Source: Jimgerdemannia flammicorona (taxonomy: Eukaryota; Mucoromycota; Endogonomycetes; Endogonales; Endogonaceae). Taken from it: a stretch of DNA of 11,262 bases. Where the stretch lies: positions 1-11,262 of the forward strand of contig RBNI01006499.1 of NCBI GenBank assembly GCA_003990745.1. Direction: 5' to 3'. The notes under the pieces are model-generated. The model saw nothing but the letters and a program-made list of their open reading frames with translations. It had not been told where the DNA came from and ran no database searches. The position numbers and the translations under genes were made by a program. Shown piece by piece: positions 149 through 11,262 of this stretch; the first letter of the stretch is position 1, and the number at the start of each line of letters is the position of its first letter.

Positions 149-354
149 TATCATATAGTGGTCACTGAGTCCTTCAAATATACTAGATTCTCTTCAAGAT
201 GTATCTCTTAGACTAACTCAAGTTTGTTATAAGCAAGTTCTTATTGGAGTGCCTTCCCAAGGTCTTATAGTCCTCAAAATTCTTATCTTTAACTGTCTTA
301 TTATCTCTTAGATTGCTTGTAAGGAAGTGTATATATTGTACTGAGAAAACTGAC

Positions 355-387
355 TTTATTTCAGAGAAAATAAGAGGGGTATTTATA
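355..387 (-). promoter_or_regulatory. TATA box and poly(A) signal in the 3' LTR of element 1
   Basis: On the minus strand TATAAATA is at 387-380 and AATAAA at 360-355, about 20 bases downstream. This spacing is usual for an LTR whose R region begins about 30 bases after the TATA box and carries the polyadenylation signal. It sets U3 as roughly 1704-360 and U5 as the last 200 bases or so. The same arrangement occurs in the right LTR and in element 2. Confidence 0.65.
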
Positions 388-486
388 TAAAATATAATTT
401 AATAATTACTAAGATATAAAGCTAAATATAAATTCCAATAACTAAAACTACTAAGTTCCAGGGTCAGTACTGATGGTTGTATAGAT

Positions 487-620
487 TCAGAATGCTAGTA
501 TGATTCAATATCACATCAGAATACCAGTGCTGGTATTATTTAGTATTACATCAAAATACCAGTGCTGGAATAATTCTGCATTACCTCAGAATGCCAGTAC
601 TGGCATTATCCAGTGGAACA
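487..620 (-). repeat. 35-bp tandem repeats with palindromic core in U3 (left copy)
   Basis: Three units of exactly 35 bp (516-550, 551-585, 586-620) and a shorter 29-bp unit (487-515) lie head to tail. Each full unit begins TCARAAT and has a core of the form CCAGTRCTGG. In units 2 and 4 this extends to an 18-base perfect palindrome (521-537 region and 590-607). The array sits between the ORF3 stop and the TATA box, about 100-230 bases upstream of TATA on the minus strand. That is where an enhancer-like binding array would be expected. Confidence 0.8.
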
Positions 621-626
621 AGGGAC

Positions 627-2013
627 TTAGAGCAGAATGTTCAAGACCATAGAGGCTTCATCCTTGTCATCAGAGGTCAGAATATCTTTAAAGGAGATGA
701 GGTCCACAAACTCATCATATAGATTGCACATCTCGCATACTTCACATGCTACAATGTCACATGGGATGACATCATCACTGATGATGTCATCACGTTCAGT
801 GGCGGCGGGAATAAGGAGATCTGGAGCTACTAGTCTATAAGGTTCTCTTCCAAAAAATAGGGAACAAATATGGGGTCTTGGGGAGATCTAACCTGGATGC
901 TTAGGCCTTGGAATACTGAGATCAATCCTTACAGGAATTGGTCTGGGTTGTCCTGGAGGATAGGATGTCAGAAGTTTTCTATTTCATCACTATTGAGGTG
1001 ATAGTGGACCAGGCTTCTGTAGCCACCCTGGCTTCTAGTGCATTGATATGGTGGGATGACAGGTCTCTGAAGTCTGAGACTCTGATATACTCTAAGTTGG
1101 AGATCAACCATGGTGCATGCCTGAAGATCTGATGGATCTTCTTAGCTGTTCTTGTCTCATCTATATCCATAGGAGTGGTATCTTATAGCTCTTGAGGGCT
1201 GGCCTGTGGGAACTCTCAGCAGAGGAAGTTTTCTATTTCGTACTCCTGCTACATTTGGAGACATTCGGTAGCAATGGTGATCCTTATTTCCATTTCATAG
1301 TAGTAGAGGATATAATGATAAGGGTCACCAGTACCCAGGTTGATACTAGGAGTCCTTCTTGAGCAGGTTCTCATAGCTCTTCTGATGTCTTGGAACATCC
1401 TTTCTTCAACTGAGATGTCTTAGTAGTTTCTTGACCTTGAGGTTTGGCAGACAGCAAGTATTTTGTTTATAGTAAATCTTTGAGCTATTTTGGGATTGGT
1501 GGGTCTTGTTAGTTGCTACTACTGCAGTTCCTTGATCCTTCTTTTATATTCCTCAGGATGCTTGTATTTCTGGTTACAATGACTCACAGTTGGTCATCAT
1601 TGCTCATCTTGTATGCCATATGATCTTCTTGTACTCCAATCTGGTGGCTTGCAAGGAAAGACTGTCTCCTATGCTAATGTCATCATTCTGGAGTCACTAT
1701 TACATCTTCCTCCTAAATAAGGATCTTCCTGAGCATCCTTTTTCATTGGTCCAGTCCTGAAAAATTTGCTGATCTCATAATCTCTGGTAAGGGGTCGAAA
1801 AGTGGTGTTTATGGGCTGGTGTCTTCTCTTTGTATTTTGGCATAATGGTGAAGAGTCGCTCTCTTCATATAGAGCAAGGGCCTGATTCTGATCTTGACCA
1901 ATCAGTTGACAGTTCAAACTCCTCTGACTTCGAAAGTCTCACAGATGAGTAGTTGCTAGTGCTATATCTCTTAGAGAATGGTCCAGACAGATAGCCTGCT
2001 GATCACAGGACAT
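627..2013 (-). pseudogene. ORF3 of element 1: unknown protein running from the internal region into the 3' LTR
   Basis: I do not recognise this protein. One minus-strand frame runs from an ATG at 2013, downstream of the integrase end near 2069, across the polypurine tract and LTR edge at 1704, to a TAA at 627-629. Two one-base losses in this copy (near 995 and 826) are corrected by the right LTR, giving about 460 residues. In-frame stops (1937 region, 1669, 1599-1594, 1521-1516, 1420, 1244 region, 1221 region, 1183, 929) are mostly explained by CAA, CAG or CGA changes. Visible traits are a basic, Gln-rich part after an SHC...KYKHPEEYKRR stretch, a central YIRVSDFRDLSS segment, and an acidic C-terminus ending LNILL. 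I see no membrane segment or signal peptide. An alternative is that the first 100 codons are chance and only the U3 part is coding. Confidence 0.6.
1705..1714 (-). other. Polypurine tract of element 1
   Basis: On the minus strand AGGAGGAAGA (1714-1705) directly precedes the LTR start TGTAATAG at 1704. A purine run at this place primes plus-strand DNA synthesis in LTR elements. It also fixes the LTR edge, which the truncated right LTR cannot show. Unusually, the tract appears to lie inside the ORF3 reading frame. Confidence 0.75.
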
Positions 2014-2068
2014 GCTGTTACAATTTGCAGACTAGAACCTTGTGGGCAGTCATTACATTTTGCTTTTC

Positions 2069-3739: not shown

Positions 3740-4690
3740 GGTCCATTTGAATTTGGTTTCCTTCTTCAGTAGCTCATAGATAGGTGCTGCAATATTGGAA
3801 TATCTTTTGATGAATCTTCTGTAGTAGCTGGCCAGTCCAAGGAAGACATGGACTTCTGTGGTTGTTCTGGATCTCGAGTAGACTGCAACAGTCTCAATCT
3901 TCATGGGGTCTGTATGGATTTCAGTTTGGTTGATGAGGTGTCCTAGGTAGGCAATTTCTTGAGCTACAAACTTGCATTTCTTAGGCTTGATGTAAAGGCC
4001 ATACTCCTTGAGCTTCTTGAGGGCTAGCTGTATGTGATTGACATATTCCCATACAGTATTACTGAAGATGATCACATCATCAACATAGACAAAGAGCCAT
4101 TTTCCAATCTTGTTACTGAAGACTCTGTTCATCATTCACTGGAAACTTGCTGGGGTATTGCACATTCCAAATGGCATTCACAGGTAGATATAGGTGGCAT
4201 CAGGTGTGATGAAGGCTGATTTCTCACTGACATCTTATGTGAGACCTATCTGATGGAAGCCTGAGAACAGATCCAAGGTGGTGTAGGATTTGGCTTTGCT
4301 TCCAAGGGTGGTAAGGATTTCTTGAATATTTGGTAAGAGCTGCCTATCCTTCTTGGTGATGGTATTGAGCTTCCTGTAGTCAATGCAGAGTCTTGGTACA
4401 AACTTTCCAGATTTGCTTCCTTTCTTCAGAGTAAGGATAATGGGTGAGGCCCAGGGGCTGATAGCTTGCTTGATGATTCCAGCTTCTTCTATTTTCTTGA
4501 GTTCTACTTACAGCCACTCTCTGTAGGCAGGTGGTATGGGTCTGGCTTTCTGGTAGATGGGCTTGGTATCACCAGTGTCAACTTCATAATAGTACTTGGG
4601 TTCTTGATTGTAGATATCCCTAAAGTCTGTAGTAAGTACTTCTTTGTTCTGGTGCAGGATCTTGAGAAGTTGTTCCTCTAGGGGAAAGTT
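3740..4690 (-). pseudogene. Reverse transcriptase of element 1 Pol
   Basis: This is the RNA-dependent DNA polymerase that copies the element RNA in virus-like particles. It is in the same frame as the dUTPase upstream and RNase H downstream. Landmarks are AREWL-type N-terminal motifs (PIPPAYREWL, about 4550-4511), LCIDYRKLN (about 4385), TLDLFSGFHQI with the first catalytic Asp (about 4270), MPFGMCNTPASFQ (about 4175), FVYVDDVIIF with the active-site YVDD (about 4090), then KKCKF and YLGHLI (about 3990-3945). LGLASYYRRFI (about 3830) is typical of the Ty3/gypsy RT-RNase H connection. Stops are at 4508, 4235, 4178 and 4136. The codon at 4178 sits where Trp or Arg is expected, and the one at 4136 where FQRMMN is usual (CGA-to-TGA). 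Confidence 0.93.
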
Positions 4691-4769
4691 TTCTCCAATA
4701 GTATATGTATACTTGTTCTGGTCCTTATCTTTCTTGTGTTCAAGTTCGGTAATCTTGGTGACAGTATAG

Positions 4770-5155
4770 GCTCCTCTTCCAGTAGATCCAAAGTCTTGTT
4801 CTCCTCTCTTTGTCTTGATGAGTTCAATGGCTTCTATGATCTTGGGCTTCTTAACTTCGTGGATCAGCATCTGGCTAATCTTGTCATGCTTCTTGACTTC
4901 AAATGGAGTAGTGGAGTTGTAATTCCTGACTATGAGAAAGATCTCACCAGTGTAATCAGGGTCAATTACTCCTCCTTTACCTGAGATTTTGCTTTTGGCC
5001 AGACTGCTCCTGGTCTTGATGATTCCAGCATGGTTCTTTGGTAACTTGACTCCAATTTCAGTGCCAAGTAGGGTGGTGGTCTGTAGTTCAAGGGTAGCAT
5101 CTTGAATGCTGGTAAGATCCATTTCTATGGCTCCTTCAGTCTTGTATTCTGAGAT
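4770..5155 (-). pseudogene. dUTPase domain of element 1, between protease and RT
   Basis: This domain hydrolyses dUTP to dUMP, lowering uracil incorporation in new DNA. All five motifs of the trimeric dUTPase family can be placed: motif 1 EGAIEMDL (the usual Gly before the hydrophobic-Asp-Leu is Glu, a possible GGA-to-GAA change), motif 2 KTRSSLA, motif 3 GVIDPDYTGEI with the catalytic Asp and Tyr, motif 4 HDKISQMLI, and the C-terminal P-loop-like motif 5 RGEQDFGSTGRG (about 4807-4772). The domain itself has no stop from 5155 to 4770. It is fused in frame to RT downstream. A related dUTPase occurs in element 2, but before the protease rather than after it. Family assignment is firm; activity is doubtful. 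Confidence 0.92.
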
Positions 5156-5479
5156 CTTGGCTTCAGGGTGAAACTTCTTGACCTTGAGGGTGATGTCTGA
5201 TTCTTGTTCCTCTTCATTGTCACTGTCAGCTTGAAGCTCTGGGGGCTTGCCATCTTCTTCAGCTTTCCTTTTTGCTTCAGCGGCTTCTTGCTCATATTTC
5301 TGTTAGCAGATTTTTCTGACTTTGCTGATACAGGACCAGCAGTCATTTAGGTATTCAGAGCAGTACATCCTAGTACCATGGGGGCATCTTCCTTGAGAGG
5401 CATAGCCATTGATAATCTTGTTGTACCACTGCTCATCTGTGAGCTTGAGTGTCTTGTTCTTAAGACCTCTGTGTCCTCT
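5156..5479 (-). pseudogene. Unrecognised Cys-rich segment plus charged linker before dUTPase (element 1)
   Basis: This is in the Pol frame, open from 5479 and leading directly into dUTPase. The first part reads LTDEQWYNKIINGYASQG followed by six Cys or His within about 30 residues (CPHG, YCSEY, CWSC, KIC; about 5395-5306), which suggests zinc binding. A TAA at 5303-5305 (CAA in the likely parent) interrupts it. The second part is a highly charged linker rich in Lys, Glu and Ala (KYEQEAAEAKRKAEED, then DSDNEEEQESD). I do not recognise the Cys-rich part. The protease before it is in another frame, and the switch is near 5480. Confidence 0.6.
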
Positions 5480-7377: not shown

Positions 7378-7586
7378 AGTTGTCACATAGTGGTCACTGA
7401 GTCTTTCAAATATGTCAGATTCTCTTCAAGATATATCTCTTAAACTAACTCAAGTCTGTTATAAGCAAGTTCTTATTGGAGTGCCTTCCCAAGGTCTTAT
7501 AGTCCTCAAACTTCTTATCTTTAACTATCTTGTTATCTCTTAGATTGCTTGTAAGGAAGTGTGTGTATTGCACTGAGAAGACTGAC

Positions 7587-7619
7587 TTTATTTCAGAGAA
7601 AATAAGAGAGGTATTTATA
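7587..7619 (-). promoter_or_regulatory. TATA box and poly(A) signal in the 5' LTR of element 1
   Basis: On the minus strand TATAAATA is at 7619-7612 and AATAAA at 7592-7587. This would be the promoter for the genomic RNA of element 1, with transcription starting near 7590. Both motifs are unchanged from the left copy although neighbouring bases differ. No experimental start is known, so the call rests on motif and spacing only. Confidence 0.65.
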
Positions 7620-7718
7620 CAAAATATAATTCAATGATTGCTAAAATATAAAGCTAAATATAAATTCCAATAACTAAAACTACTAAGTTCTAGGATTAGT
7701 ACTGATGGTTGTACAGAT

Positions 7719-7852
7719 TCAGGATACTGGTATAATTCAGTGTTACATCAGAATACTGGTACTGGTATTATTTAGTATTACATCAAAATACCAGTACTAG
7801 AATAATTCTGCATTACCTTAGAATGCCAGTGCTGGCATTATCTAGTATAACA
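7719..7852 (-). repeat. 35-bp tandem repeats with palindromic core in U3 (right copy)
   Basis: This is the counterpart of the left array, with the same unit lengths (29, 35, 35, 35: 7719-7747, 7748-7782, 7783-7817, 7818-7852). Here the last unit keeps a perfect palindrome (AATGCCAG TG CTGGCATT), while unit 2 has lost symmetry to a tandem ACTGGT repeat. The array is upstream of the TATA box at 7619. A role in binding a dimeric regulator is an inference from position and symmetry. Confidence 0.8.
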
Positions 7853-7858
7853 AGAGAC

Positions 7859-8900
7859 TTAGAGCAGAATGTTCAAGACCATAGGGGCTTCATCCTCATC
7901 ATCAGAGGTCAGGATGTCTTTGAAGGAGATGAGGTCCGCAAACTTGTTATGTAGGTCATGCATCTCGCATACTTTGCATGCTTCGATGTCATGTGGGATG
8001 ATGTCATCACTGATGATGTCATCATGTTTGGCAGTGACAGGAACAAGGAGATCTGGAGCTCTCCAGTCTATGAGGTTCTCTTCCAAAAAATAGGGAACAA
8101 ATGTGGGGTCTTGAGGAGGTCTAACCTGGATGCTTAGGCCTTGGAATACTGAGATCAATCCTTGCAAGAATTAGTCTGGGTTGTCCTGGAGAATAGAATG
8201 CCAGAAGTCTTCTACTTCATCACTATTGAGGGTGATAGTAGACCAGGCTTCTGTAGCCACCCTGGCTTCTAGTGCATTGATATGGTAGGATGATAGGTCT
8301 CTGAAGTCTGAGACTCTAACATACTCCAAGTTGGGGATCAACCATAGTACATGCCTGAAGATCTGATGGATCTTCTTAGTCATTCTTATCTTGTATATAT
8401 CTATAGAAGTAGCATCTTGAAGCTCTTGAGGGCTGGCCTGTGGGAACTCTCAGCAGAGGAGGTTTCCTATTTTGTACTCCTGCTATATTTGGAGGCATTT
8501 AGTAGCAATGGTGATCCTTATTTCCATTTCACGATAGTAGAGAATATAATGATAAGAGTCACTAGTATCTAGGTTGACACTAGGAGTCCTTCTTGAGCAG
8601 GTCCTCATAGCTCTTCTGATGTCTTGGAACATCCTTTCTTTGACTGAGATGCCTTGATAGTTCCTTGACCTTGAGGTTTGGTGGGCAGTAGGCATTTTGT
8701 TTATAGTAAGTCTTTGAGCTATTTTGGGATTGGTGGGTCTTATTGGTTGCTGCTACTGTAGTTCCTTGATTCTTCTTTTATATTCCTCAGGATGTTTGTA
8801 TTTCTGGTCACAATGACTCACAGTTGGTCATCATTGCTCATCTCATATGCCATATGATCTTCTTGTACTCCAATCTGATGACTTGCAAGGAAAGACTGTC
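7859..8900 (-). pseudogene. ORF3 (U3 part) in the 5' LTR of element 1
   Basis: This is the same reading frame as the left-copy ORF3, here without its N-terminal part because it lies in the 5' LTR. It stays in one frame from about 8899 to the TAA at 7859-7861. Stops are at 8843, 8831, 8828, 8753, 8483, 8447 region and 8171. Three open stretches remain: 8695-8486 (begins MPTAHQTSRS), 8383-8174 (begins MTKKIHQIFRHVLW) and 8167-7862 (QGLISVFQGLSIQV, ending SDDEDEAPMVLNILL). Several positions that are stops in the left copy are sense codons here and the reverse, so the parent element had a more open frame. A CKVCEMHDLH stretch near 7970 looks like a zinc ligand set but is not kept in the left copy (CEVCEMCNLY). 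Function is unknown. Confidence 0.6.
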
Positions 8901-9304
8901 TGTAACATTTTAGCATAGTTTATTTCTTTTCTCTGTCTTTCTTGAATATTCTATAACCTTCCGGCACTTTCTGCGTACTTAGAAATCCCCTTCTTGGTGC
9001 CAAGCATTAACTAGTACTTATTTAGTTAGTCACTGAATGTCCTGGAAACTTGTAGAACTTTATTTGTCATCATTTGTCATCTTTACTGAGAACTTTCCTC
9101 TTGGCATTTTCCTTTGATTTCTCAGATCCTTCCGGATCCTTCTTTCAGATCTTGTATAAATATCTCCTTTGTTCTCATAAATAAAGCTTTAGAATATTTT
9201 CTCCCAGAAATCCTTCGAGAACACTTGAACCCTTAGTATCTCTTCGAGCTACTTAGGATTACCAGAACTAGTCACTTCCTCAATTAGAAACTAGAACCAT
9301 TACA
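8901..9304 (+). repeat. 5' LTR of element 2
   Basis: It starts TGTAACATTTTAGC and ends CCATTACA, giving a five-base terminal inverted repeat TGTAA/TTACA. It is 404 bp long. Its start coincides exactly with loss of similarity to the left LTR of element 1, and its end is followed two bases later by a primer-binding site. The partner LTR is outside the window, so the right edge rests on these two signals. Confidence 0.85.
9155..9185 (+). promoter_or_regulatory. TATA box and poly(A) signal in the LTR of element 2
   Basis: TATAAATA is at 9155-9162 and AATAAA at 9180-9185. Transcription would start near 9185-9190, making U3 about 285 bp and R plus U5 about 120 bp. The spacing is close to that in element 1, although the LTR sequences are otherwise unrelated. 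Confidence 0.65.
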
Positions 9305-9306
9305 CT

Positions 9307-9320
9307 TGGTAGCAGCGGTG
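9307..9320 (+). other. Primer-binding site of element 2
   Basis: Two bases after the LTR end the sequence reads TGGTAGCAGCGGTG. The first seven bases, TGGTAGC, resemble sites complementary to the 3' end of initiator methionine tRNA used by many LTR elements. A comparison with the host tRNA set would be needed to name the primer. Confidence 0.65.
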
Positions 9321-9372
9321 AAGTTACACCTAGCCTTATCAAGACACCTCTCAAGATATCAGTCACAACACT

Positions 9373-10419
9373 ATGGAGGACAACAGGTAGAACCCTTCAT
9401 ACAGTACCTACAGTCCAGGCAATGCCTCATACAATCAGCAAGAAGAAGAGGAACAGCAAAACCCTACTCAGTCAAATGGGGCCATCAAGAGTCTTTTGCA
9501 GAATATACTAGCTCAGATTGCTCAACTTCAAGAACACATAGAAAGAAAGGAAAGCAAGGCCTCTGCTCATACCTCCGCACCTCCACCGACATCAATACAT
9601 CCAACAGTAGTCACTATCAAGTCCCAGAAGCCCGACACCTTTGATGGTCAAAGAGGAGGACTGTCTACCGACACCTGGCTTTTCCAATTGGAGCAATATG
9701 GAGAGCTGACCAATTTGGAAGAAGCAACACTAGTCCAATTTGCCGCCACACTCCTCTGAGGGAATGCTGCAATCTGGTAGTGAAATCATGTCCAGAATAC
9801 TAGATTCTCTGGCCGAATCAAGACCTGGGGTGAATTCTCTGATACCATTCAAGGCCAATTCAAACCAGTCAACAGCACTAAGGCCGCGCGAGACCATCTG
9901 GCAAATGTCAAACAACTCAAGTCTGTGCAAGCATACAATGCACAATTCCTGTCAATCCTGCTAGAATTACCACATGTCACTGAAGACGAGAAGGTCGACA
10001 AGTACATCCGAGGCCTGAAAGGTCAAACCCGAGTTCATGTCGAACTAGAAGAATCCAAGGACCTAGATACAGCAATGAAAATTGCTAATAGGTTTGATGT
10101 CATCACCTATGGTCACTATTTTGAACAGAAGAGACCACCTTTCAACAACAACAACCACAGAAGGGAGGAACCCAAAGTCAGAACTGTTGGACCTGCCCCC
10201 ATGGATCTAGATACCATTGACAAGAACAAGAAAGGCAAGCTTACCCCCGAGGAAAAGGAGTGTCTCAAGAAGGCTGGAGCCTGCTTCTTTTGCCGTCAGC
10301 CTGGCCACATTGCAACCAAATGTCCCAAGAAAACTGCCAAACCAAAGAGGATTCTGGTCCTATCCAAAGACACTCAAGGTCAACCAGTTGAACAAGAAGT
10401 TGTACTCAATTTCATGTGA
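9373..10419 (+). pseudogene. Gag of element 2 with CCHC zinc knuckle
   Basis: This is the capsid protein of element 2. ATG at 9373 (MEDNR) is the first start after the primer-binding site, with a stop upstream in frame. The frame runs 348 codons to TGA at 10417-10419. The N-terminus is polar and Gln/Glu-rich, then a probable coiled coil (SLLQNILAQIAQLQEHIERK, about 9490-9550). The retrotransposon Gag domain (PDTFDG..., IKTWGEFSDTIQGQFKP, VQAYNAQFLSILLELPHV) is at about 9628-10080. A zinc knuckle, CFFCRQPGHIATKC (10282-10323), is near the end. Four internal stops interrupt it: 9388 (TAG), 9757 (TGA), 9778 (TAG) and 9781 (TGA). The middle ones fit LLRGN and IWWRNH, that is CGA-to-TGA and TGG-to-TAG. 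The final TGA may also be damage, because dUTPase follows in the same frame. Confidence 0.9.
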
Positions 10420-10818
10420 GTCAACCCCAAGACCCAGATCCCTCAAGCACAGTCAGAAGGAGCCATTGGTTTGGACCTTCAAGCAGTACAACAAGTCACC
10501 ATTCTGGTATATGAGAGAAGGCTCATTCCAACTGGCCTTTCAGTCGAAATCCCCAAGGAATATTATGCAAGAATTGCACCAAGATCTGGCCTCAGCTTCA
10601 AGCACTCATTGGATGTTGGTGCTAGAGTCATTGACCCTGACTTCCGAGGTAAAATGCAAGTTCTGCTAGTCAATCACAAGAACCAGCCATACACTGTCAA
10701 TGAAGGTGACAGAATCACACAGCTCATTCTGGAGTGAGCCACCCTACCAGTTGTCAAAGAAGTCACCAAACTGTCCTCAACTAAGCGAGATCAGAAAGGC
10801 TTTGGCAGCACTGACAAA
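10420..10818 (+). pseudogene. dUTPase domain of element 2, between Gag and protease
   Basis: This is a trimeric-type dUTPase, in frame with Gag after the TGA at 10417. Motif 1 is EGAIGLDLQA (about 10477-10506), motif 2 APRSGL (about 10576), motif 3 RVIDPDFRGKMQVLLVN with the catalytic Asp (about 10624-10674; the usual Tyr is Phe), motif 4 GDRITQLIL (about 10705-10731), and motif 5 RDQKGFGSTD (10786-10815). A TGA at 10735-10737, which fits ERATLP with CGA, separates motifs 4 and 5, the latter needed to close the active site. Similarity to the element 1 domain is clearest at motif 1 (EGAIGLDL against EGAIEMDL). Its place before the protease is opposite to element 1. Confidence 0.9.
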
Positions 10819-10836
10819 GTTGTAAGTATAGCCGAG

Positions 10837-11262
10837 AACCAAGTCAACTCAATGTTCATCTTCAAAGGTCTAGTCAAGGGACAAGAACTAGATGTTCTCA
10901 TAGACAGCGGAGCTGTTGGGAACTTCATCAACAAGAACCTCATCGATAAGCTCAAGATTCTTACCAAACCAGCTGGCAAGAATGGTGGAGTTGTCACCAC
11001 AGATGGCACCACCTTACCAATTGACTCAATTACTGCTAAACTTCCCCTCAAGATCCAGAAGTACTGGGAACATTTAGATTTTGAGGTAGCACCACTAGGA
11101 GACCATGACCTGATCCTAGGCAAACCCTGGCTTACACAGCACAACCCTCAGATTGATTGGACCAAGAATGAAGTCACCTTGATTCAGGATGGAGCCAACA
11201 TTACCATCAAGCCAGACAAGACTCAGACAAGAACCCCAATTGCTACTCTTTCAGCAATTCAG
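10837..11262 (+). CDS. Aspartic protease of element 2 and start of the link to RT (open at window end)
   Basis: This retropepsin-like protease is in frame with the dUTPase upstream, and has no stop from 10738 to the window end. The active site is DVLIDSGAVGNFINK (catalytic Asp codon 10903-10905). The C-terminal part carries DHDLILGKPWLTQHNPQIDW (about 11104-11160), the usual ILG..WL motif of Ty3/gypsy proteases. Substrate would be the Gag-Pol polyprotein. The last 25 codons are probably the link to RT. It is the best-preserved part of either element here. Confidence 0.88.

What the first reader, a model, noticed from the sequence alone, without database searches (positions are those of the whole stretch)
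627..2013. A third ORF that crosses the polypurine tract and is mostly encoded by the LTR
Seen: a single minus-strand frame links the region after integrase (2013-1705) with about 360 codons of U3, ending just before the 35-bp repeats and promoter. Frame positions 2013, 1917 and 1170 agree. The right LTR keeps the frame from about 8899 to 7859, and the only two indels separating the LTRs lie in this ORF in the left copy. This explains the 1.5-kb LTR. Known: LTR-overlapping 3' genes exist in some retroviruses (sag of MMTV, nef of primate lentiviruses). I know of no described case in a fungal Ty3/gypsy element. Inference: an accessory gene of unknown function, read from the 3' end of genomic or spliced RNA.
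Basis: partly seen in the sequence, partly recalled or inferred. Interest (0 to 1): 0.88.

Follow-up and report, generated by a model that had tools for sequence, protein, structure and literature searches.

The report
Protein gene inside fungal retrotransposon LTRs
The repeated ends of a fungal retrotransposon, which normally hold only control signals, contain a reading frame of about 280 codons that many copies keep open and that likely encodes a protein with which the element would regulate or de-silence itself.

Summary
The finding is half right, and the right half is the interesting one. The window holds a broken Ty3/gypsy element with a dUTPase in pol, on the minus strand of a fungal genome. 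Its 1.5-kb LTR contains a protein-coding frame of about 277 codons, wholly inside U3 (window 1461-627 and 8695-7859). Both window copies are broken, but 40 of 132 scored genome copies have no stop. In 69 LTR copies, 64 of 84 distinct gaps in the frame are multiples of three, against 10 of 77 in the flanking LTR. A second, diverged LTR family keeps the same frame without a gap over 651 nt, with more amino-acid identity than neutral placement gives. Homologues 57-84% identical lie on public contigs.

The frame does not cross the polypurine tract: in 28 of 28 element 3' ends it is closed by stops on both sides of the LTR edge. A TATA-like site 70-88 nt upstream, shared by both families, suggests a promoter inside U3, so every LTR, solo ones included, may be a complete gene. 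Function is inferred: a trans-acting regulator of the element's own LTR, working like TE-encoded anti-silencing (VANC) proteins or viral U3 genes. No known domain, no usable fold and no expression data were obtained.

The parts
627..1461 (-). U3 gene, copy in the 3' LTR (codons 20-296 plus stop); broken: ATA at the start position, in-frame stops, two frame-shifting 1-bp indels
7859..8695 (-). U3 gene, copy in the 5' LTR; ATG present, no indel, broken by in-frame stops
   Evidence: coordinates of the ATG read
149..1704 (-). 3' LTR; edges read from the sequence and from where matches of other copies begin
7381..8901 (-). 5' LTR, outer end cut off by the insertion of another element
1705..1714 (-). 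polypurine tract (sense AGGAGGAAGA)
   Evidence: read; LTR edge
1538..1549 (-). TATA-like site ATATAAAAGAAG upstream of the U3 gene, shared with family B; putative U3-internal promoter (inferred)
8772..8783 (-). same TATA-like site in the 5' LTR
493..614 (.). 35-bp tandem repeats, 3.5 copies, between gene and LTR promoter
7725..7835 (.). 35-bp tandem repeats, 3.2 copies, 5' LTR
376..392 (-). usual LTR promoter TATA box (TATATAAATACCCC), followed by AATAAA
4508..5302 (-). pol part with dUTPase domain
   Evidence: PF00692, E 3.3e-23
2018..2020 (-). end of pol: stop in 28 of 28 3' ends

Best explanation
Each LTR of this fungal Ty3/gypsy family contains, wholly inside U3, a reading frame of about 277 codons that many copies keep open, and it is likely translated into a protein predicted to act in trans on the element's own LTRs. 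Shown: the position of the frame, its presence in both LTRs, its stop-free state in 40 of 132 scored copies, gain and loss of bases mostly in threes, and its survival in a second diverged family. Inferred: it is transcribed from a TATA box inside U3 (70-88 nt before the ATG) and polyadenylated at the AATAAA of the same LTR, so each LTR, solo ones included, would be a complete small gene. Inferred, less surely: the protein (basic start, helical middle in low-confidence models, fast-changing acidic tail) recognises U3 DNA such as the 35-bp tandem repeats just below the gene and activates the LTR or lifts its silencing, as VANC proteins do for VANDAL transposons.
For: Open copies: 40 of 132 scored places stop-free. 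No near-fixed stop in 296 codons of 28 3' ends, while the other two frames have 10 and 7 such stops there. Distinct gaps divisible by three: 64 of 84 in the frame, 10 of 63 downstream, 0 of 14 upstream (P 2e-16). Fewer replacement changes than same-base random placement in codons 20-230 (P 0.0075 and 0.0045). Family B: 92 of 211 residues kept against 70.4 +/- 4.8 expected, none of 5000 trials, no gap in 651 nt. Homologues at 57-84% identity. Shared 12-mer ATATAAAAGAAG upstream (0.6% of shuffles). Positive-to-negative charge along the protein. Tandem repeats of varying number beside the gene and a constant core with a variable tail resemble VANC and its targets (PMC5735166, passages).
Against: No transcript or protein evidence. 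No family passed a cut-off and no PDB match; models have pLDDT 36-37, so no DNA-binding fold is shown. Family B has no tandem repeat in the stretch read. Repeat arms do not covary. Over codons 20-296 in three frequency classes the replacement deficit is significant in one only (P 0.054, 0.007, 0.122), and rare changes in the tail show none. Pol, as a positive control for the gap test, had one gap only and tells nothing. 92 of 132 scored copies carry stops and 14 of 68 a frame-shifting gap. The family-B copy read has 7 stops in codons 20-230 and no ATG at the start position. The searched protein P0001 itself has ATA at codon 20.
Confidence: 0.55

Rival explanations
1. The U3 gene is real but serves another purpose: an accessory protein that acts on the particle, on nuclear entry or on a host factor, comparable to nef or sag in position only.
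For: Same evidence for a selected protein; no recognised DNA-binding domain; the tandem repeats are missing in family B.
Against: No similarity to the window's two Gag pieces. Nothing else speaks against it directly.
Confidence: 0.35
2. The gene is expressed not from U3 but from spliced or read-through genomic RNA that starts in the 5' LTR.
For: U3 of the 3' LTR lies at the 3' end of genomic RNA in every LTR element (established knowledge); described sag mRNAs include ones that start in the 5' LTR (PMC4667437, passages).
Against: The TATA-like site upstream is shared by two families and found in 64 of 69 copies; no splice signal was tested systematically.
Confidence: 0.4
3. The open frame is a chance or compositional artefact of a long AT-rich LTR.
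For: Both window copies are closed, and acidic codons such as GAT and GAA favour open frames.
Against: Gaps in threes, conservation with family B beyond neutral placement, homologues at 57-84% identity.
Confidence: 0.02
4. One ORF runs from the end of pol across the polypurine tract into U3.
For: Pol and the U3 gene are in the same frame relative to each other; another frame, 1941-1599, crosses the edge without near-fixed stops.
Against: Eight positions in the U3 frame upstream of the gene are stops in 28 of 28 copies. Between pol stop and LTR 4 distinct gaps, and from LTR edge to codon 20 another 7, none a multiple of three.
Confidence: 0.03

Closest known systems
sag of MMTV and related betaretroviruses
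   Same: Most of the gene lies in U3, it is kept in solo LTRs, and one described promoter is inside U3 (PMC4667437, passages).
   Different: Here the gene is wholly within the LTR of a fungal Ty3/gypsy element; no sequence match to any Pfam family passed its cut-off.
nef of primate lentiviruses (recalled)
   Same: 3' gene overlapping U3.
   Different: nef starts before the LTR; here stops close the frame on both sides of the LTR edge.
VANC proteins of VANDAL transposons in Arabidopsis
   Same: TE-encoded protein with a conserved part and a variable part; targets are often tandem repeats that differ between related elements (PMC5735166, passages). Compared for how it may work only.
   Different: VANDALs are DNA transposons (recalled); no VANC domain was found and binding is untested.
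dUTPase-bearing fungal Gypsy elements (Postia, Phanerochaete, Tuber Tmt1)
   Same: dUTPase between protease and RT as in PosPlaTy3-5 (PMC2864245, passages).
   Different: A figure legend there lists an additional ORF of unknown function whose place was not in the passages I saw; no LTR-encoded gene is mentioned in them.
Third ORFs of bdelloid LTR retrotransposons
   Same: Extra genes beside gag and pol in dUTPase-bearing elements (PMC5408684, passages).
   Different: The passages I saw do not place any of them inside an LTR.
crapaud of Podospora anserina
   Same: Fungal LTR element whose subfamilies differ in the 5' half of the LTR (PMC10787394, passages).
   Different: The passages describe gag and pol ORFs only and discuss promoter change as the cause.
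LTR-overlapping gag or pol ends, e.g. Ty1 and plant CRM elements (recalled)
   Same: Coding sequence that enters an LTR.
   Different: Those are ends of gag or pol; this is a separate gene wholly in U3.

Membership tests
Ty3/gypsy (Metaviridae) element | Gag, protease, RT, RNase H, integrase, with integrase after RT | tested here: met
   zinc knuckle, RVT_1 (44.9 bits), RT_RNaseH_2, Integrase_H2C2 above cut-off and in this order; the protease match (22.1 bits) is below its cut-off of 28.2. No tree was built.
Ty3/gypsy (Metaviridae) element | Two LTRs with polypurine tract and primer-binding site | tested here: met
   LTRs 90% identical; polypurine tract and a TGG-starting site next to the 5' LTR read; tRNA not identified.
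U3-encoded accessory gene (sag/nef type, by position) | Conserved protein-coding frame in U3 | tested here: met
U3-encoded accessory gene (sag/nef type, by position) | Sequence similarity to Sag or Nef families | tested here: not met
   No Pfam family over its cut-off for two natural copies
U3-encoded accessory gene (sag/nef type, by position) | mRNA of its own | not testable with these tools
   No expression data; TATA-like site only
VANC anti-silencing protein | VANC sequence domains | tested here: not met
   best match ATG5_HBR at E 0.019, below cut-off, for one copy; none for the other
VANC anti-silencing protein | Tandem-repeat targets in the element that vary between related elements | tested here: inconclusive
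   35-bp repeats called in 57 of 69 family-A copies, about 2-5 units, none called in 12; none in the one family-B stretch; binding untested
VANC anti-silencing protein | Loss of DNA methylation in trans | not testable with these tools
   No methylation data
Envelope-like third ORF | Signal peptide or transmembrane segments, env similarity | tested here: inconclusive
   No Pfam env match; no transmembrane predictor was run
Gag paralogue | Profile similarity to Gag of the same element | tested here: not met
   Profile comparison with two window Gag pieces, probability 0.1%

The most novel reading that the evidence does not exclude
A retrotransposon lineage in fungi has turned its LTR into a self-contained gene: U3 carries its own promoter, a trans-acting anti-silencing or activator protein and the shared poly(A) site, so every insertion and every solo LTR left by recombination keeps supplying the protein that reopens all family copies. 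It would be a retrotransposon counterpart of VANC.
Probability: 0.25. Interest if true: 0.9.

Novelty: new variant of a known kind. Interest (0 to 1): 0.72.

Why it matters
LTRs are usually treated as noncoding, and separate genes in U3 are known to me only from retroviruses. A conserved gene wholly within U3 of an abundant fungal Ty3/gypsy lineage would mean that solo LTRs, normally counted as inert debris, can carry protein genes, and it would offer a concrete protein with which to test how fungal transposons answer RIP and DNA methylation. In the listings of the searches I saw no report of such a gene in a fungal Ty3/gypsy element; the library lacks most subscription journals.

Tried and rejected
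Rejected: (1) a PPT-crossing ORF. (2) The 113-codon open stretch 1941-1599 in another frame as a gene: the gaps there are few and none is a multiple of three. (3) A Gag paralogue: profile comparison with two window Gag pieces gives nothing. (4) The 35-bp repeats as conserved hairpins: arm positions do not covary beyond shuffles. (5) Fold search: not run, because both models were unusable. (6) Relatives in viral contigs and in bacterial and archaeal genome contigs: 70 and 24 pattern matches, none confirmed by tblastn. (7) One repeat unit (window about 541-549) holds the VANC21 motif YAGTATTAY; I take it as chance. (8) Transversions by codon position within family A: too few to decide. (9) Replacement/silent counts within the family: signal present but modest, because most differences are transitions (minor-allele copies in codons 1-296: 4336 transition, 420 transversion).

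Not done: a pol phylogeny, transmembrane or splice-site prediction, dating of copies, a census of solo LTRs.

Full report
Setting. A 678-bp piece of its RPB2 gene scores about 398 bits against yeast RPB2 chains and 328 against the next group (that the latter are animal chains is recalled), so the host is a fungus. On the minus strand the window holds a Ty3/gypsy element: Gag zinc knuckle, protease-like match (below its cut-off), dUTPase, RT, RNase H and integrase zinc domain in that order, with LTRs at 149-1704 and 7381-8901. The 5' LTR is cut at its outer end by a second, plus-strand element that runs off the window (Ty3-type capsid, zinc knuckle, dUTPase).

The observation. The window's frame in U3 is interrupted by stops, and in the left LTR also by two 1-bp indels. 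The genome shows that this is decay of a real gene. Searching it with the translation of one natural copy (P0001, 296 aa) gave 132 scored places of 4504 first-look candidates, 83-100% identical; 40 of 132 have no stop by my count of the list. These are the best-scoring places, so the fraction is not that of the whole family. Pairs about 7.2 kb apart on one strand of one contig (C4384, C7256, C3776, C5061, C7360) fit the two LTRs of one element; in C4384 both are stop-free.

Extent. I aligned 28 distinct element 3' ends (chosen as loci whose match covers the end of pol and the LTR edge, five duplicates removed). In the frame of P0001 no stop is fixed at codons 1-296 (at most 7 copies share one), whereas stops sit in 28 of 28 copies at codon 0 (window ~1522), at -18, -28, -58, -60, -115, -161 and -166, and at 297. 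One copy outside this set, L041, lacks the stop at 297 and runs on. The three-frame map shows that pol ends at the fixed stop at ~2020 and that the other two frames have 10 and 7 near-fixed stops within the stretch of the gene. The gene lies wholly inside the LTR. Codon 20 is ATG in 55 of 69 copies and ATA in 14. P0003, a database homologue, starts at this codon, and 135 of its 142 matches here begin at its residue 1 by my count. P0001 itself has ATA there.

Selection. Of 86 loci, 9 were left out as duplicates and 8 dropped for short matches, leaving 69 LTR copies. Aligned one by one to L024, distinct gaps divisible by three number 64 of 84 inside codons 20-296, 10 of 63 downstream in the LTR and 0 of 14 upstream (Fisher P 2e-16 for the frame against both flanks). 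In the 28 3' ends the numbers are 49 of 59 in the frame, 2 of 26 after it, 0 of 7 from LTR edge to codon 20, 0 of 4 between pol and LTR, and 0 of 1 in the end of pol, so pol is no useful control. Gaps not divisible by three hit the frame in 14 of 68 copies. Most differences are transitions, most frequent at CpA/TpG and next at CpG, so the stops fit RIP-like or methylation-linked decay. Replacement changes in codons 20-230 are fewer than when the same changes are placed at random on same-base sites (122 against 137.7, P 0.0075, rare; 88 against 104.7, P 0.0045, common). In the tail (231-296) rare changes show no deficit (60 against 56.7) and common ones a weak one (P 0.03). An earlier split over codons 20-296 in three frequency classes gave P 0.054, 0.007 and 0.122.

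A second family. Searching with P0006 gave 164 matches, list cut; about two dozen by my reading are more diverged and more decayed. One (L087, on C602) lies in LTR-like repeats: most matches to it either end near query position 1223-1240 or run to about 1450, which I read as 5' or solo LTRs against 3' LTRs. Against L024 it aligns over 651 nt at 60.5% identity with no gap. In codons 20-230 it keeps 92 of 211 residues where random placement of the same substitutions keeps 70.4 +/- 4.8, and none of 5000 trials reached 92; frames +1 and +2 give 57 and 65 of 210. It carries 7 stops there, against 10.7 +/- 2.9 in the trials. Below the gene its LTR has the same TATAAATACC ... AATAAA layout, but no tandem repeat was found.

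Relatives elsewhere. Three protein searches gave P0002-P0008, 57-84% identical to P0001 over 43-94% of it, all from contigs under 1.7 kb, one named 'hypothetical protein'. No Pfam family passed its cut-off (best ATG5_HBR, E 0.019), no PDB chain matched, and PHROGs gave one match at E 0.041. AlphaFold models have mean pLDDT 36 and 37 and show helices followed by an unstructured tail; no fold search was made on them. Net charge runs from positive at the start to strongly negative at the end.

How it may work. Upstream of the gene, inside U3, families A and B share the 12-mer ATATAAAAGAAG, 88 and 70 nt before codon 20; 0.6% of shuffled pairs reach that length, and TATAAAAGAAG is present in 64 of 69 family-A copies. 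I infer a U3-internal promoter, with the AATAAA of the same LTR as terminator; described sag promoters include one inside U3 (PMC4667437, passages). Below the gene lies a 35-bp repeat, called in 57 of 69 copies at about 2-5 units, then the usual TATA box (TATAAATA seen in 41 and AATAAA in 43 of 69 pieces, many of which were cut before that point). An element protein with a constant core and a fast-changing tail beside tandem repeats that vary between families is the pattern described for VANC proteins and their targets (PMC5735166, passages). I therefore commit to a trans-acting regulator of its own LTR as the likeliest function; this step is inference only. My odds: selected protein gene about 0.95, own U3 promoter about 0.5, regulator of its own LTR about 0.35. 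The absence of the repeats in family B argues against that array as a general target.

Verdict. The gene is real and its position unusual; the PPT-crossing claim is wrong; the function is open.

Noticed in passing
window 8902-11262 (+): A second Ty3/gypsy-type element (Ty3 capsid match, zinc knuckle, dUTPase) is inserted in the outer end of the 5' LTR, cutting it at about 8901; its own LTR seems to be about 8902-9304.
   Followed up: partly
window 4508-5302 (-) and 10420-10737 (+): Both elements carry a dUTPase domain, in the first between protease and RT.
   Followed up: no
window 1941-1599 (-): About 113 codons in another frame cross the LTR edge without a stop in 90% or more of 28 copies; gap pattern does not support coding.
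   Followed up: partly
L007/L013 (C2170:6592-6779) and C5780:4827-5248: Some copies have extra partial LTR ends next to a full LTR, as if LTR tails were duplicated.
   Followed up: no
codons 231-296 of the U3 gene: The acidic tail differs between copies by many in-frame insertions and deletions, far more than the core.
   Followed up: partly
P0008 (database protein): A homologue whose end departs from the family after DLISFE into an unrelated cysteine-containing stretch; frameshift or fusion not resolved.
   Followed up: no
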